A stretch of DNA of 64,000 nt from Beggiatoa alba B18LD (GTDB taxonomy: Bacteria; Pseudomonadota; Gammaproteobacteria; Beggiatoales; Beggiatoaceae). The position numbers and the translations under genes were made by a program. Shown here piece after piece: positions 5,576-62,549 of the stretch (within the stretch, counting starts at the first letter, position 1; every line of letters begins with the position of its first letter). The notes beneath the pieces are model-generated. The model was given only the letters and a program-made list of their open reading frames with translations. It was not told the DNA's origin and searched no databases. Location of the stretch: NCBI RefSeq assembly GCF_000245015.1, contig NZ_JH600070.1, positions 947,594-1,011,593 on the forward strand, written 5' to 3'.

Positions 5576-5597
5576 ATAAAGGTTTTCGCCTTATTAT

Positions 5598-5811
5598 AAC
5601 CTGAGTTTGGCGAATTTTATAAAATAAAACAGAGACCTGCTAGGTTTTAAAAACCTAGCAGGTCTTTTTTTGTCTGAATCAGAATTTTCAGAATTAAAAA
5701 GCATGATTCACCTTAATTTTTTGGTTTAAGGGTTTTAAATTCTGTTAATTCTGTGAATCCTGATTCAGACAAGCTGTTGTCTTTTTAAAAGAAACTCGCT
5801 GAACTCAGGTT
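5598..5811. mobile_element. MITE-like element A1 (TA-flanked, inverted ends)
   Basis: The ends are imperfect inverted repeats (AACCTGAGTTTGGCGA / CGCTGAACTCAGGTT), flanked by TA on both sides. Inside are a 31-base hairpin (5634-5664, GACCTGCTAGG stem) followed by seven T, and a second inverted pair built on TGTCTGAATCAG and CTGATTCAGACA. There is no coding capacity. It probably also terminates the dehydrogenase transcript. Confidence 0.85.
5634..5671 (+). terminator. Terminator-like hairpin inside element A1
   Basis: The GACCTGCTAGGTTTT stem pairs with its complement and is followed by TTTTTTT, 58 bp after the dehydrogenase stop. The same hairpin recurs in the other elements of this family. 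Confidence 0.7.
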
Positions 5812-5827
5812 ATATACGAATAAAAAT

Positions 5828-6041
5828 AACCCGAGTTCGGCGAGTTTTATAAAATAAAACAGAGACCTGCTAGGTTTTAAAAACCTAGCAGGTCTTTTTT
5901 TGTCTGAATCAGAATTTTCAGAATTAAAAAGCATGATTCACCTTAATTTTTTGGTTTAAGGGTTTTAAATTCTGTTAATTCTGTGAATCCTGATTCAGAC
6001 AAGCTGTTGTCTTTTTAAAAGAAACTCGCCGAACTCAGGTT
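5828..6041. mobile_element. MITE-like element A2, tandem copy of A1
   Basis: The 214-bp copy has ends AACCCGAGTTCGGCGAG and CTCGCCGAACTCAGGTT and the same internal hairpin (5864-5894 plus T-run). Confidence 0.85.
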
Positions 6042-6071
6042 ATATACGAATAAAAATAAGTATTTCGATAT

Positions 6072-15868: not shown

Positions 15869-16417
15869 ATGAACTTAGACAGAGTCACATCAGGCAAAAA
15901 TCCCCCCAGTGATGTCAATGTCATTATTGAAATTCCCGCCCATAGCGACCCCGTTAAATACGAAGTGGATAAAGAAACAGGCGCGATGTTTGTCGACCGT
16001 TTCATGAGTGCCGCCATGCACTACCCCTGCAACTATGGCTATATTCCCCATACTCTCGCAGGCGATGGCGACCCTGTTGACGTGTTAGTCATCACCCCCG
16101 TGCCTTTAATCAGCGGTTCTGTCATTCGCTGCCGTCCTGTCGCCTTATTACGCATGACGGACGAATCTGGACAAGATGCCAAAGTGCTAGCTGTTCCCGC
16201 TGACAAATTAAGCACCCAATATCGGAGCATATTAGACCTGAAAGATGTTCCACAAAACATGCTCGACCAAATTGCCCACTTCTTTGAACATTACAAAGAT
16301 TTAGAACCCAACAAATGGGTAAAATTAGACTGTTGGGCAGCCATTGAAGAAGCCCACCGCGAAATTACCGAAGGGATTGAACGCTACAATTCCAGCGCAG
16401 AAAAACCGAATTTCTAA
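15869..16417 (+). CDS. ppa: Inorganic pyrophosphatase (family I)
   Basis: It hydrolyses pyrophosphate to phosphate and pulls biosynthetic reactions forward. At 182 residues it has the usual bacterial length. Motifs: [29 protein letters not shown] and the signature DGDPVDVLV with its metal-binding aspartates; a C-terminal KWVKLDCW segment is also conserved. It stands 88 bp after argF. Its TAA stop is included in a 69-bp direct repeat that recurs at 16641. Confidence 0.96.
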
Positions 16418-16442
16418 TTCGTTTCACTGAATTAAACAATAA

Positions 16443-16480
16443 AAAGACCTGCTAAGTTTTCAAAACTTAGCAGGTCTTTA
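16443..16480. terminator. Bidirectional terminator hairpin after ppa
   Basis: AAAGACCTGCTAAGTTTT pairs with its complement, A-rich before and T-rich after. It is 25 bp past the ppa stop. Confidence 0.75.
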
Positions 16481-16668
16481 TTTGTCTGAATCAGAATTCA
16501 CAGAATTTTCAGAATTAGCAGAATTAAAAACAATTAAAAACATAATTTTTTATTCTTTTAATTTTCTTGTCTTTTTAATTCTGAAAATTCTGATTCAGAC
16601 AAGCTGTTGTCTTTTTAAAAGAAACTCGCCGAACTCAGGTTAATTCGTTTCACTGAATTAAACAATAA

Positions 16669-16709
16669 AAAGACCTGCTAAGTTTTCAAGACTTAGCAGG
16701 TCTTTATTT
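16669..16709. terminator. Second copy of the hairpin, likely terminator of the DEAD-box gene
   Basis: Same hairpin as at 16443 with one changed base in the loop, 28 bp past the stop of the convergent helicase gene. Confidence 0.7.
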
Positions 16710-16736
16710 TTAATGAACTAACAAACGCCGATTAAA

Positions 16737-18635
16737 TTAATCCGCTTTTTTCGTCCGTTTAATCCGTAGCGTTTCATGTCCTGAAGACCCTGAAGACTTA
16801 ACACGTGTTTTTTCAGTCGTGGTGCTAGTTTTTGCCGTGCGTGGTTTACTGCTACTAGCCCGTTCACCACCACTTTTGCCTTTGCTAGCAGGGACTGGCG
16901 CGGGCGTACCAGTATCCAGCACTAACCGTAATTGCTGACCACAAACCCACACTTTTTGCAAATGCTGAAACACATCTTTTGGCATACCTTCAGGTAAATC
17001 AACCGTACTATAGGTATCATAAAGCTTGATTTGTCCAATATGATGACTTTCTAAACCTGCCTCGTTAGCAATTGCACCTACGATGTGTTTAGGTTGCGCC
17101 CCATGTGTCCGTCCAACTTCAATGCGATAACGCACCATGTCTTCATTAGACGATTCTTGGCGGGGTTTACGCTCACGCGGTTCGCGAGGCTCGCGGGATT
17201 CGCGTGCTTCACGGGGGTCACGCTCTTCTTTTTGGCGACTATTACGTGGTGCACGAGTACGACGACTGCTATCGTCTGCAATGGTTTCTTTTTCGCGACT
17301 ATGCTTTTCTTCAACTTTAGGCAATAACAAAGGACGTTCCCGTTGGAATAAAAACGCTAAGGCGGAAGCGATTTCGTTTAAACCTATGTCATGTTCTTGT
17401 TGGTAACTGTTAATAATATCTTCAAAAAAGCCTAATTCTTCGGCAGCGAGTGCATCAGTAATTGCTTGTTTAAACTGACTAATCCGTTTGTCTGTAATAT
17501 CTTCATGACTAGGCAATTGCATCGGTGTAATTGGTTGACGAGTTGCGCGTTCAATATCGCGTAACATCCGTTGTTCGCGTGGAGAAACGAATAAAATCGC
17601 TTCGCCTTTACGTCCTGCACGCCCTGTTCGCCCTATCCGATGAACATAAGCCTCTGTATCAGTGGGAATATCATAGTTAATAACGTGGGTAATCCGTTCC
17701 ACGTTTAAGCCACGGGCTGCTACATCGGTAGCGATAACGATGTCTAACGCACCATTTTTTAAGCGTTCAACCGTTTTTTCCCGTAAAGATTGATTCATAT
17801 CGCCATTTAACGGCGCGCTGGCGTAACCTCGGGCTTCTAATTTTTCTGCTAATTCCGCCGTTGCCGTTTTGGTGCGCACAAAAATGATAATAGCATCAAA
17901 GTCTTCTACTTCTAAAATTCGAGTTAAAGCATCGAGTTTATGCACACCAGACACTTGCCAATAACGTTGAGTAATACTCGCAACAGTAACAGTTTTCGCC
18001 TGAATTCTAATTTCAACAGGGTCTTTTAAGTGACGACGAGCCACTTGGCGAATGGCATCGGGCATCGTTGCAGAAAATAAGGCAACTTGGCGTTCGCTGG
18101 GAGTGTGGTTCAGAATTTCTTCTACATCATCAATAAAACCCATACGCAACATTTCGTCGGCTTCGTCTAGCACTAAAGTTGCAATTTGGTCTAAACGTAA
18201 TGTCCCACGTCCTAAATGGTCTAAAACTCGCCCTGGTGTACCAACAACAACATGAACACCGCGTTTTAATTGGCGTAGTTGTAACCCCATATCTTGCCCG
18301 CCATAGATGGGCAACACATGAAAGTTGGGCAAATGCCGTGCGTATTTTTGCATGGCTTCTGCAACTTGAATGGCTAATTCACGGGTAGGTGTCAACACTA
18401 AAATCTGAGGGGTTGTTAATTCGAGATCTAAACGGCTTAACAATGGCAAGGCAAAGGCGGCAGTTTTACCTGTGCCTGTTTGCGCTTGTCCCAGTAAATC
18501 ACGACCTGCAAGCAAGGGTGGAATGCTTTCAGCTTGAATTGGGGAAGGCGTTTCGTATCCAATATCATCGATTGCTTTAAGAATAGCGGGTGCAAGTGCC
18601 AGTTGCGAAAATTGGCTAATAATTTCTGTGGGCAT
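16737..18635 (-). CDS. deaD: ATP-dependent DEAD-box RNA helicase DeaD/CsdA
   Basis: It unwinds structured RNA in ribosome assembly and mRNA turnover, especially in the cold. The 632-residue protein has the Q motif (YETPSPIQAESIPPLL), AQTGTGKT, PTRELA, GTPGR, DEAD (in LVLDEADEML), SAT, and ARGLNVERITHVINYD with HRIGRTGR. After the core comes an Arg/Glu-rich segment (about 445-500), then a DbpA-type RNA-binding fold (YRIEVGRTHGAQPKHIVGAI), and a basic, Ser/Thr-rich tail. This order is that of DeaD rather than RhlE or SrmB. A 332-bp region before the start may hold a long cold-shock leader, which is known for E. coli csdA. Confidence 0.94.
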   Translation of the reverse strand: MPTEIISQFSQLALAPAILKAIDDIGYETPSPIQAESIPPLLAGRDLLGQAQTGTGKTAAFALPLLSRLDLELTTPQILVLTPTRELAIQVAEAMQKYARHLPNFHVLPIYGGQDMGLQLRQLKRGVHVVVGTPGRVLDHLGRGTLRLDQIATLVLDEADEMLRMGFIDDVEEILNHTPSERQVALFSATMPDAIRQVARRHLKDPVEIRIQAKTVTVASITQRYWQVSGVHKLDALTRILEVEDFDAIIIFVRTKTATAELAEKLEARGYASAPLNGDMNQSLREKTVERLKNGALDIVIATDVAARGLNVERITHVINYDIPTDTEAYVHRIGRTGRAGRKGEAILFVSPREQRMLRDIERATRQPITPMQLPSHEDITDKRISQFKQAITDALAAEELGFFEDIINSYQQEHDIGLNEIASALAFLFQRERPLLLPKVEEKHSREKETIADDSSRRTRAPRNSRQKEERDPREARESREPREPRERKPRQESSNEDMVRYRIEVGRTHGAQPKHIVGAIANEAGLESHHIGQIKLYDTYSTVDLPEGMPKDVFQHLQKVWVCGQQLRLVLDTGTPAPVPASKGKSGGERASSSKPRTAKTSTTTEKTRVKSSGSSGHETLRIKRTKKAD

Positions 18636-18967
18636 GACCGAACCTGAATAAATAATATTAAGCCCCTTACATTGCTGTCGTTATCTCGTGGGACTCGTGA
18701 ATTACTACTACAACTATTTTAAATGTAGAATTTTACCTGATTTCAACAGAATCCGTTATGTGATTTTTAGTTGAATGTAATGTTTATTTATGGAAACAAC
18801 TGAACACAGGTTAATGATGTTTGTAATGGTAGGAGAATGTGCGAAGGTTTATCTATTATACAATTGAGTTTAATTAACGCATAACGTGGCATTGTAAAAA
18901 TCTTGGGCATATCTGTATTATTTGCTTGAAAGTTATCAATATTTTTTCGTGTAACTCTTTAATCTTT
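18636..18967. other. Intergenic region upstream of the DEAD-box gene
   Basis: 332 bp between the start of the helicase gene and the end of the methylase gene (same strand). I see no ORF with a ribosome site and no strong hairpin. It is likely promoter and leader. Confidence 0.45.
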
Positions 18968-19951
18968 TTATATTTTAAAAGCAAGTTGCTGACAAACAGG
19001 TGTTTTTTTAAATTCCTGTTTAGTTTCTACTGCGTAGTTCATTATTAAGGCTTCCATAATCGCATTGCGATTTTCTTCTTTTCCCCCTAAATGATAAAAA
19101 TGAGCGGTTGTTATAATAGTATAATTTTTCCAAAGACTTTCCAAGTAGCTGTTTTTTCTGTACTGGTTGCTATGCCAAGTAGAAACCATAAATTTTGCGT
19201 TACTATTTTGTAAAGATTTTTCTAACGCAAGTTCGTTTTGCTCATCCCAACTATCGTAATAATCTACATGTCTGCCAATGTAAGGCGGATCACAGTAAAT
19301 CAAATCATTATTCTTTGCTAGCTTTATTGTTTCTCTGAAATCTTGACAAACAAATTTCCAATCATTGTTTTCTATCAAAAATGCAATATGTTTTACTTGA
19401 TTTGTGATTCTTGTAACGTAGGATTGTGCAAATCTTTCAGGTTTATGTCCATAAGGTACATTAAATTTTAATTGGCGATTAAAACGTATCATGCCATTAA
19501 AGCAACTCCGATTTAGAAATAAAAAATCAAGAGGTTGATGTTCTTTATTAAATTTTTCCCTAACTTCGTTATAATACACCTGTCCCTTTTTTGCTAAAAT
19601 TTTCCCTTGTTCTTGTAAGAAACTCTTTACAATTAAATGGTTTATTTCTTTACTTTTAATAGCATTGTAAAAATTAATAATATGTGGATTACTGTCTGCA
19701 AAAATTGCTTTTGTAGGTTTTACATTAAATCCCACAACCCCTGAACCCATAAAAGGCTCAACCCAAGTTGAGTATTCATTGGGCATATTTTTAAGAATAA
19801 AATCTACTAATTTTGTCTTTTTACCTTGAATTTTTATAGGGGGGACGTACGCAGTTTCTTTACTCATCATCGCAAAAGATTGATTAGCTTTTAAGTATAG
19901 TTTATTTTTTACTTCCTTTATTTTCTTAATCCTAACGGGAATTTTTCCCAT
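18968..19951 (-). CDS. EcoRV-type DNA adenine methyltransferase (D12 class)
   Basis: It should transfer a methyl group from SAM to adenine in DNA. The 327-residue frame carries WVEPFMGSGVVGFN (SAM motif FxGxG, 67-71), FLFLNRSCFNGMIRFN and the catalytic DPPY (221-224) in IYCDPPYIGRHVDYYDSW. From VPPIKIQGKKTKLV onward the order and wording closely follow my recollection of M.EcoRV, so GATATC is the predicted target. The family start aligns with MMSKETAYVPP at residue 28; the first 27 residues are an unusual basic extension continuous with the upstream remnant. No restriction gene is intact nearby. AT-rich codons and isolation suggest horizontal transfer. Confidence 0.88.
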   Translation of the reverse strand: MGKIPVRIKKIKEVKNKLYLKANQSFAMMSKETAYVPPIKIQGKKTKLVDFILKNMPNEYSTWVEPFMGSGVVGFNVKPTKAIFADSNPHIINFYNAIKSKEINHLIVKSFLQEQGKILAKKGQVYYNEVREKFNKEHQPLDFLFLNRSCFNGMIRFNRQLKFNVPYGHKPERFAQSYVTRITNQVKHIAFLIENNDWKFVCQDFRETIKLAKNNDLIYCDPPYIGRHVDYYDSWDEQNELALEKSLQNSNAKFMVSTWHSNQYRKNSYLESLWKNYTIITTAHFYHLGGKEENRNAIMEALIMNYAVETKQEFKKTPVCQQLAFKI

Positions 19952-19957
19952 TACAGT

Positions 19958-20056
19958 TCATTGATTATCAGGTGTTGAAACATATTCTTTGAGTGTTTCA
20001 GCAAAATTTTGCAGTTTTTGAAGAAAATCCGTTTTGATTTGATTTTTATTCATCAT
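19958..20056 (-). pseudogene. Probable N-terminal remnant of the partner restriction endonuclease
   Basis: A 32-codon frame (MMNKNQIKTDFLQKLQNF..., ending STPDNQ) stops at TGA 19958-19960. It is in the same frame as the methylase, so reading through that TGA gives one continuous frame (NQ-stop-TV-MGKIPV). The TGA could be a mutated TGG. The residues resemble the first helix of EcoRV-like endonucleases as I remember them, but this cannot be proven here. There is no clear ribosome site. Alternatively it is a chance frame or a short leader peptide. Confidence 0.45.
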
Positions 20057-20155
20057 TAGCGACAGGAAAACAGTTGTACAAAGCAGACTTAATAATACCA
20101 CTGTTCATGAAAATGGATAACATGACATAACACCATGTTATCCGCAATAAACTTT

Positions 20156-21103
20156 TTAATTCATACGCATTAAAACACGTAAATGCGCGGTAACGCTACG
20201 TCCTAATGAGTGTAATTCATAACCGCCTTCTAAAGCGGAGATAATGCGCCCCTCACCGTATTTATCGGCAACATTTAATAATTCTTGTGTGACCCAAGCA
20301 TAATCTCGTTCAACTAACCGTAAGCTCGACATGTCATCATCATAATGTGCATCAAACCCTGCGGATATAAAAATAATTTGTGGCATAAATTTATGCAATG
20401 CAGGCAACCAGTAATCAGTTACCGCTGCTCGGAACTTTTCCCCATCACTCCCCGCAGCCAATGGCGCATTAACGACATTAGATGGTACGTTTTCTGTGCC
20501 ACAGTAAGGATAAAATGGATGTTGGAAGGTAGAGCAAAATAAAATATTGGGATTATTTTGCACGAGGTCTTCTGTTCCATTGCCATGATGTACATCAAAA
20601 TCAACGATAGCAACCCGTTGTACGCCATACTCCGCAATCGCATGGGCTGCGCCAACAGCGACATTACCAAAAAAGCAGAAGCCCATAGATTCGCCACGTA
20701 GTGCATGATGCCCTGGTGGACGGACACAGCAAAAAGCGGCTTTGGTTTTCCCTGTCATGACTAAATCAGTGGCTAACACGGCTGCCCCCGCAGAGCGTAA
20801 TGCGGCTTGTGGGGTTTTGGGCATAATTAACGTATCAGGGTCTAAATAGGCGTGTGGATTTTCCGAGTCCACATAGGCTTCTAATTTGGAATAAGAAAGC
20901 ACTCGAGAAATATAGTTTTTATCATGAACACGGGCTAATTGCCCCACGGTTGCGAGGGGTGCTTCATAATGACGAACAAAGTCAAAAAGATGTGAGGCTT
21001 TCAACTGGTCTTCAATGGCTTCAATTCTGGCTGGACATTCCGGATGTCCCTCCCCCATGTCATGCAGTAAGCAATCGGGATGATAAATATAAGCGATTGT
21101 CAT
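20156..21103 (-). CDS. Histone deacetylase family (class II / AcuC-like) amidohydrolase
   Basis: This zinc-dependent deacylase has 315 residues. It begins IAYIYHPDCLLHDMGEGHPECPARI. Key active-site segments are RPPGHHAL (paired His), VDFDVHHGNGTEDLV (zinc Asp and His), ISAGFDAHYDDD and LEGGYE. Bacterial members act on acetylpolyamines or acetylated proteins; the substrate here is unknown. It is a single gene with a 330-bp upstream region. A second family member is at 49041-49934, only distantly similar. Confidence 0.92.
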   Translation of the reverse strand: MTIAYIYHPDCLLHDMGEGHPECPARIEAIEDQLKASHLFDFVRHYEAPLATVGQLARVHDKNYISRVLSYSKLEAYVDSENPHAYLDPDTLIMPKTPQAALRSAGAAVLATDLVMTGKTKAAFCCVRPPGHHALRGESMGFCFFGNVAVGAAHAIAEYGVQRVAIVDFDVHHGNGTEDLVQNNPNILFCSTFQHPFYPYCGTENVPSNVVNAPLAAGSDGEKFRAAVTDYWLPALHKFMPQIIFISAGFDAHYDDDMSSLRLVERDYAWVTQELLNVADKYGEGRIISALEGGYELHSLGRSVTAHLRVLMRMN

Positions 21104-62295: not shown

Positions 62296-62549
62296 AACCT
62301 GAGTTCGGCGAGTTTTATAAAGTAAAACGGAGACCTGCTAGGTTTTCAAAACCTCGCAGGTCTTTTTTTGTCTGAATCAGAATTCACAGAATTTTCAGAA
62401 TTAGCAGAATTAAAAACATAATTTTTTATTCTTTTAATTTTCTTGTCTTTTTAATTCTGAAAATTCTGATTCAGACAATCTTTTAATCCTGTGAATCCTG
62501 ATTCAGACAAGCTATTGTCTTTTTAAAAGAAACTCGCCGAACTCAGGTT
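62296..62549. mobile_element. MITE-like element A5 (254 bp)
   Basis: The ends AACCTGAGTTCGGCGAG and CTCGCCGAACTCAGGTT are flanked by TA. It has the GACCTGCTAGG hairpin with T7, TGTCTGAATCAG/CTGATTCAGACA pairs, and an extra internal TGATTCAGACA copy. It forms the leader of the PilO-like gene. Confidence 0.87.

What the first reader, a model, noticed from the sequence alone, without database searches (positions are those of the whole stretch)
18968..20056. Collapsed EcoRV-like restriction-modification system
A close M.EcoRV-type methylase is preceded by a 32-codon frame that is in the same frame and separated by one TGA (likely former TGG). The remnant resembles an EcoRV-type endonuclease N terminus, so the nuclease was apparently lost by internal deletion and the methylase kept. 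Its basic N-terminal extension may be leftover nuclease sequence. GATATC is still present in the window.
Basis: partly seen in the sequence, partly recalled or inferred. Interest (0 to 1): 0.6.

Follow-up and report, generated by a model that had tools for sequence, protein, structure and literature searches.

The report
Decayed EcoRV-type restriction system, methylase kept
A bacterium once acquired an EcoRV-like DNA-cutting defence system, lost nearly all of the cutting enzyme through an internal deletion, and kept the partner enzyme that marks DNA, with the tail of the lost cutter now joined to the marker's front end: a clear fossil of a known kind of event.

Summary
The finding is real and its main interpretation holds. 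Minus strand 18968-19951 carries an M.EcoRV-type adenine methylase without lesions (83% identical to an Ignavibacteria homologue, L011). The 31-codon frame before it is the N terminus of an EcoRV-type endonuclease: 80 of 102 bases match the intact nuclease gene directly upstream of the L011 methylase, and the TGA falls on a tryptophan present in 56 of 57 relatives examined. The methylase's basic extension is the nuclease's C terminus: 39 of 60 bases match without gaps, in register (next best of 799 offsets: 28). So an in-frame deletion of about 612 bp removed nuclease residues 35-239, catalytic core included; the methylase ORF's first ATG is the junction codon. A stretch 52 bases shorter than in L011 puts the nuclease tail in frame with the methylase and lacks L011's ribosome-binding-like sequence. 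On the window's branch the relics change at a roughly neutral rate while the methylase stays constrained. The 1.4-kb AT-rich island is absent from the one same-genus genome held; no full EcoRV-type nuclease was found in this genome; GATATC is not avoided. A new, readable example of a known kind: a solitary methylase left by a decayed type II system. Methylation itself is untested.

The parts
19958..20053 (-). Relic of the EcoRV-type endonuclease N terminus (31 codons), ending in TGA at 19960-19958
   Evidence: 76% aa identity over 38 positions, E 2e-15, to the nuclease N terminus of L011; 80 of 102 bases identical (34 codons counted); TGA aligns with a Trp present in 56 of 57 relatives examined
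19949..19957 (-). Last kept N-terminal codons (Thr, Val) and the junction codon ATG (19951-19949), the first ATG of the methylase ORF
   Evidence: Comparison with the L011 gene: residue 34 is followed, after one junction codon, by residue 240
19889..19948 (-). Relic of the endonuclease C terminus (20 codons, L011 residues 240-259), fused in frame to the methylase
   Evidence: 39 of 60 bases identical ungapped, codon positions 14/17/8 of 20; next best of 799 offsets 28 of 60; protein score 42, 0 of 1000 shuffles as high
19871..19888 (-). 18-base spacer where L011 has 70 bases; lacks the ribosome-binding-like AGGAAA of L011
   Evidence: Sequence; duplex energies
18968..19870 (-). M.EcoRV-type D12 adenine methylase proper (300 codons from MMSKE plus stop)
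   Evidence: 83% to L011 over 300 aa; 78 of 80 near-invariant columns kept; 52% to the methylase beside R.EcoRV on pLG13
18770..20154 (.). AT-rich island holding the system; not matched in the same-genus genome
   Evidence: GC about 0.30-0.33 against 0.43-0.46 in the adjoining parts of the flanking genes; G369 matches stop at 18769 and resume at 20155, at two places 2.1 Mb apart

Best explanation
A complete EcoRV-type type II restriction-modification pair (nuclease upstream, methylase downstream, overlapping by a few bases as in L011) was acquired from elsewhere, its nearest known relatives being in Ignavibacteriota and Bacteroidota. An in-frame deletion of about 612 bp removed nuclease residues 35-239; a shortening of the nuclease tail brought its frame into the methylase frame; a TGA arose at a conserved tryptophan. 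Restriction is gone. The methylase still methylates its site (predicted GATATC, at adenine) and is now solitary, made either from the junction ATG with a 27-residue mostly nuclease-derived extension or from MMSKE. Shown: parentage of both relics, deletion ends, loss of the catalytic core, near-neutral change in the relics, constraint on the methylase over its branch. Inferred: transfer and donor, order of events, translation start, methylation activity and target, present use.
For: Relic matches to intact neighbours' nucleases; the L011 nuclease is an EcoRV relative by sequence (E 3e-39 to EcoRV chains); methylase sister to L011, support 99/88; no PF09233 match in the own genome although the same model finds one in 7 of 369 genomes of the class, 6 of them over the cut-off; window-branch changes in the relics 17 of 23 nonsynonymous (p 0.42 against a uniform neutral expectation), in the methylase 30 of 73 (p 3e-14), Fisher p 0.008; AT-rich island absent from G369; GATATC not avoided.
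Against: The C-terminal relic is short; with gapped DNA alignment it did not exceed shuffles (21 of 300 as high with L011, 25 of 300 with L012, where the best alignment lay elsewhere), although the ungapped in-register DNA and protein tests do. The pooled pairwise dN/dS of the N-terminal relic to L011 is low (about 0.09), so its near-neutral change rests on few branch-specific changes (3 synonymous, 6 nonsynonymous, the TGA among the latter). The methylase branch is longer than L011's (0.20 against 0.066; relative rate test p 0.008 with L013 as outgroup, p 0.23 with L012) and it departs at 2 of 80 near-invariant columns, as many or more than 58 of the other 63 rows, so some relaxation is possible. 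No ribosome-binding site is visible at any candidate start. Methylation was not measured.
Confidence: 0.9

Rival explanations
1. The methylase is also dead or dying: it lost its ribosome-binding site and is a young pseudogene caught before its first stop codon.
For: No ribosome-binding-like sequence at any candidate start while L011 has one; longer branch; 2 of 80 near-invariant columns changed.
Against: 300 codons without stop or frameshift; 30 of 73 window-branch changes nonsynonymous against 81% expected if neutral, p 3e-14; both departures are conservative (A to S, K to R). About a quarter of the long frames of this window also show no such site at their first ATG. Part of the branch may predate the collapse, so very recent death is not excluded.
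Confidence: 0.12
2. The relics are working parts: the short N-terminal frame is a leader ORF whose stop sits 6 bases before the junction ATG, so that the methylase is made by stop-restart with a nuclease-derived extension.
For: TGA-ACTGTA-ATG spacing; in L011 nuclease and methylase overlap, so coupling may be ancestral; the site seen in L011 is missing.
Against: Relic codons change at a roughly neutral rate, so their sequence is not under visible constraint; the leader start has no visible ribosome-binding site either; the spacing could be accidental.
Confidence: 0.2
3. Chance: a short ORF and a lysine-rich extension that only resemble a nuclease.
For: Pfam gives only an unrelated match at E 0.037 and NCBIfam none for the 79-residue stretch.
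Against: E 2e-15 to the gene at the equivalent place next to the closest methylase; in-register C-terminal match.
Confidence: 0.01
4. Assembly error collapsing an intact nuclease gene.
For: Only one assembly was available; the PF09233 search of the own genome would miss pieces as short as these relics, since it missed the relics themselves.
Against: No full nuclease match elsewhere in the genome; the C-terminal relic has diverged at a roughly neutral rate, which an error would not produce.
Confidence: 0.02

Closest known systems
Intact EcoRV-type pair in L011 (Ignavibacteria bacterium UBA2373, DDTD01000096.1)
   Same: Gene order and strand; methylase 83% identical; N-terminal nuclease segment 80 of 102 bases
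   Different: L011 has a full 285-residue nuclease frame overlapping the methylase start; here residues 35-239 are gone
EcoRV system of E. coli plasmid pLG13 (NC_005019)
   Same: Methylase 52% identical over 89% of the query; solved EcoRV nuclease is a relative of the L011 nuclease
   Different: There the nuclease gene is divergent (opposite strand), with a regulator gene between
Solitary (orphan) type II methylases
   Same: Methylase without a cognate nuclease; PMC4752239 (passages) found no nuclease candidate for 165 of 318 type II methylases
   Different: This one is absent from the one same-genus genome searched and still shows the nuclease relic
Nuclease relics beside EcoRV-type methylases in two other genomes of the class (L007 of G183, L008 of G042)
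   Same: Broken nuclease next to a methylase match of 51-53%; L008 also lost an internal part
   Different: Fusion of the relic to the methylase frame was not examined there; L008's methylase match runs to the end of the held stretch

Membership tests
EcoRV-type type II restriction-modification system | Methylase of the M.EcoRV clade of D12 adenine methylases | tested here: met
EcoRV-type type II restriction-modification system | Intact EcoRV-family endonuclease with its catalytic core | tested here: not met
   Residues 35-239 deleted; no PF09233 match in the genome
EcoRV-type type II restriction-modification system | Nuclease and methylase genes adjacent | tested here: met
   Relic directly upstream, as in L011, L012, L015
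EcoRV-type type II restriction-modification system | Methylation and cleavage of GATATC | not testable with these tools
   Specificity is predicted by homology only
Solitary (orphan) type II methylase | No cognate nuclease in the genome | tested here: met
   (own genome, 0 matches at E up to 10); a nuclease of another family with the same site was not sought
Solitary (orphan) type II methylase | Methylase still under constraint | tested here: met
   with the reservations given in the Against line
Conserved regulatory orphan methylase (Dam/CcrM-like use) | Conserved in related species | tested here: not met
   Same-genus G369 has only 30%-identical matches; the best full-length matches in the family are 51-53%, short pieces up to 61%

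The most novel reading that the evidence does not exclude
The deletion created a new expression unit: the nuclease's first 31 codons became a leader ORF, the junction made the start codon, and the methylase is now produced by stop-restart with a basic extension taken from the nuclease's tail, replacing the ribosome-binding site that was lost with the end of the nuclease gene.
Probability: 0.2. Interest if true: 0.45.

Novelty: new member of a known kind. Interest (0 to 1): 0.32.

Why it matters
It is a readable snapshot of how a solitary methylase can arise: both ends of the lost nuclease are still legible, so the route (in-frame internal deletion, methylase spared, nuclease tail joined on) can be told rather than assumed. 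Practically, it predicts that DNA of this organism resists R.EcoRV although the organism does not restrict at that site.

Tried and rejected
Pfam and NCBIfam scans of relic plus extension gave nothing useful (one match at E 0.037 to an unrelated tRNA-binding model; none); direct comparison with neighbours' genes was needed. A gapped DNA alignment of the extension was not significant; the ungapped in-register test was. An empty site could not be read, because the two flanking genes lie 2.1 Mb apart in the same-genus genome; a family-wide search for the deacetylase-like neighbour (29 of 42 genomes) was made for the same purpose and not taken further. GATATC avoidance, as a trace of past restriction, was not found. 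Promoter-like sites were no more frequent than in shuffles (9 against a mean of 8.5) and none on the minus strand lies between the neighbour's terminator-like hairpin and the relic. Among solved structures the methylase matches only Dam/DpnII-type methylases (10 distinct sequences); among phage records the best of 950 matches is 45% identical. Literature: the titles and abstract beginnings listed (10 papers; 20 of 1,690; 2; 10 of 49; 12 of 23) showed nothing on this locus; none of the 20 listed papers holds the species name I had guessed. A term search in PMC4081073 gave one unrelated passage. Structure prediction was not used.

The pooled pairwise estimate for the N-terminal relic against L011 (dN/dS about 0.09) looks constrained; I rely instead on branch-specific counts, which are small.

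Full report
WHAT IS THERE. The minus strand of 18968-19951 is one open frame of 327 codons. From residue 28 (MMSKE) on, it is an adenine methylase of the D12 class (PF02086 E 5e-47; TIGR00571 E 2e-59). Its nearest relatives found are methylases of EcoRV-type systems: 83% identity over 300 residues to an Ignavibacteria metagenome-assembled genome (L011), 78% to L012 and L013, 52% to the methylase next to R.EcoRV on E. coli plasmid pLG13. Before it lies a frame starting at 20053 (an ATG also precedes at 20056), ended by TGA at 19960-19958, in the same frame as the methylase.

THE UPSTREAM FRAME IS A NUCLEASE N TERMINUS. I compared it with the 100 loci held at that point. The best match outside the own genome is the start of the gene directly upstream of the L011 methylase: 76% identity over 38 residues, E 2e-15; then L012 66%, L015 58%, L025 59%, L016 57%. 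That L011 gene encodes 285 residues and matches the solved EcoRV endonuclease chains at E 3e-39 over residues 25-256. At DNA level 80 of 102 bases agree. The TGA stands where relatives have tryptophan: 56 of 57 loci whose nuclease match reaches the N terminus have it, by patterns that I wrote after looking at the segments; the exception, L036, is read in another frame before that point, so it looks frameshifted.

THE EXTENSION IS THE NUCLEASE C TERMINUS. The residues between ATG 19951 and MMSKE (GKIPVRIKKIKEVKNKLYLK and a few more) line up with L011 nuclease residues 240-259 (GKITFRDKKITDLKTYLQFK). Protein local score 42, with 0 of 1000 shuffles as high against L011; score 36 and 2 of 1000 against L012. 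Ungapped DNA: 39 of 60 bases at the homologous offset, the next best of 799 offsets being 28 of 60; agreement by codon position is 14, 17 and 8 of 20, the pattern of a diverged coding sequence. A gapped DNA alignment was not better than shuffles (21 of 300 and 25 of 300 as high), so the case rests on the register, the codon pattern and the protein match.

THE LESIONS. Residue 34 (Val) is followed by one junction codon and then by residue 240. Against L011, residues 35-239 are replaced by that codon: a net loss of about 612 bp, in frame, which takes the PD...DxK core with it (the motif as such is recalled; in L011 it reads YPDI...VDLK). The junction codon reads ATG and is the first ATG of the methylase ORF. 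In L011 the nuclease and methylase frames differ and overlap at ATGATGAGTAA; 70 bases separate residue 259 from the MMSKE start. Here it is 18 bases, 52 fewer, which puts the nuclease tail in frame with the methylase (sequences). The AGGAAA in front of the L011 methylase (duplex energy -3.8) falls in this stretch and is missing here; the candidate starts here give 0.2 to 2.0, whereas the first ATGs of 32 long frames of the window have a median of -3.1, though an upper quartile of 0.4, so lacking such a site is not rare. Since tail length varies among relatives, the ancestral tail may have been shorter than L011's.

SELECTION. With L012 as outgroup, changes on the window's side are 6 synonymous and 17 nonsynonymous (the TGA included) in the two relics together (expectation under uniform random change 81% nonsynonymous; p 0.42), against 43 and 30 in the first 290 methylase codons (p 3e-14 against the same kind of expectation); Fisher p 0.008 between them. 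The C-terminal relic has 9 amino acid changes on the window's side and none on L011's. The methylase keeps 78 of 80 columns that are at least 97% invariant in the other 63 rows; the departures are A to S and K to R. Against full constraint: 2 or more departures occur in only 6 of the 64 rows, the window's included; its branch is 0.20 against 0.066 for L011; and the relative rate test gives p 0.23 with L012 and p 0.008 with L013.

CONTEXT. GC is 0.30-0.33 in the half-kilobase windows from 18750 to 20249 and 0.43-0.46 in the adjoining helicase and deacetylase-like genes; other non-coding stretches nearby are also AT-rich (0.33 at 16250-16749). In the only same-genus genome searched (G369), matching stops at 18769 and resumes at 20155, the two flanks being 2.1 Mb apart; G369 has only 30%-identical methylases. 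The window's methylase is sister to L011 (99/88), inside sets of four and six rows that otherwise hold Bacteroidota (99/97, 100/99). So the island probably came in from elsewhere. The own genome has no PF09233 match (the 14 control genomes gave no match over the cut-off, so they are no positive control), while 7 of 369 genomes of the class have one, 6 over the cut-off. Its only other methylase match is a 28%-identical one at C2:3433479.

HOW COMMON IS IT. Of the 71 methylase loci L011-L081, 63 gave a near full-length methylase; the other 8 (L065, L066, L068, L069, L070, L079, L080, L081) were dropped as partial. Of the 63, 9 showed no nuclease match (L013, L014, L024, L046, L047, L058, L063, L073, L074); four of the nine (L014, L046, L063, L074) have under 900 bases on one side, so absence is unproven there. 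Five (L013, L024, L047, L058, L073) have at least 1.5 kb on both sides. L013 keeps what looks like the nuclease's last residues just before its methylase (by eye). Several other loci have nuclease frames split in two or cut short, which in metagenome assemblies may be sequencing errors. Nuclease relics beside methylases occur also in two other genomes of the class (L007, L008). The loci were found by peptide patterns from this methylase or by kinship of the genome, so these counts are not frequencies.

FUNCTION. Most likely the methylase still marks GATATC and nothing cuts at it. GATATC occurs 637 times in the genome against 404 for the reversed sequence, so no avoidance is seen. Solitary type II methylases are common: PMC4752239 (passages read) found no nuclease candidate for 165 of 318; it also reports that 57% of orphan methylases are conserved in their genus, against 9% of those in restriction systems, and this one is absent from the one same-genus genome at hand. 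I therefore favour recent loss over an adopted regulatory role. PMC3488263 (passages read) describes the reverse decay, nucleases beside broken methylases, and truncated nuclease genes. Whether the relic serves as a leader for stop-restart translation is open (probability 0.2).

VERDICT. Observation confirmed, interpretation supported and sharpened.

Noticed in passing
window 5596-6059: A 230-base unit repeated twice in tandem at 98% matches; the unit holds an inverted repeat followed by a run of T.
   Followed up: no
window 16491-16525 and 62377-62411: Two distant places carry the same 18-base tandem unit TCAGAATTAACAGAATTT, perhaps a dispersed repeat family.
   Followed up: no
window 20115-20143 (-): A terminator-like hairpin of 13 pairs behind the deacetylase-like gene, between it and the nuclease relic.
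   Followed up: no
window 18769 / 20155 against G369: The genes flanking the island are neighbours here but 2.1 Mb apart in the same-genus genome: a rearrangement breakpoint coincides with the island.
   Followed up: partly
L013:3960-4011: A Bacteroidetes relative (78% methylase) shows no nuclease match but keeps what looks like its last residues just before the methylase (by eye): perhaps another loss.
   Followed up: partly
L008:807-1042 (-): In another genome of the class the nuclease beside an EcoRV-type methylase is reduced to two abutting pieces, homologous to L003 residues 105-133 and 241-292: apparently an independent internal deletion.
   Followed up: partly
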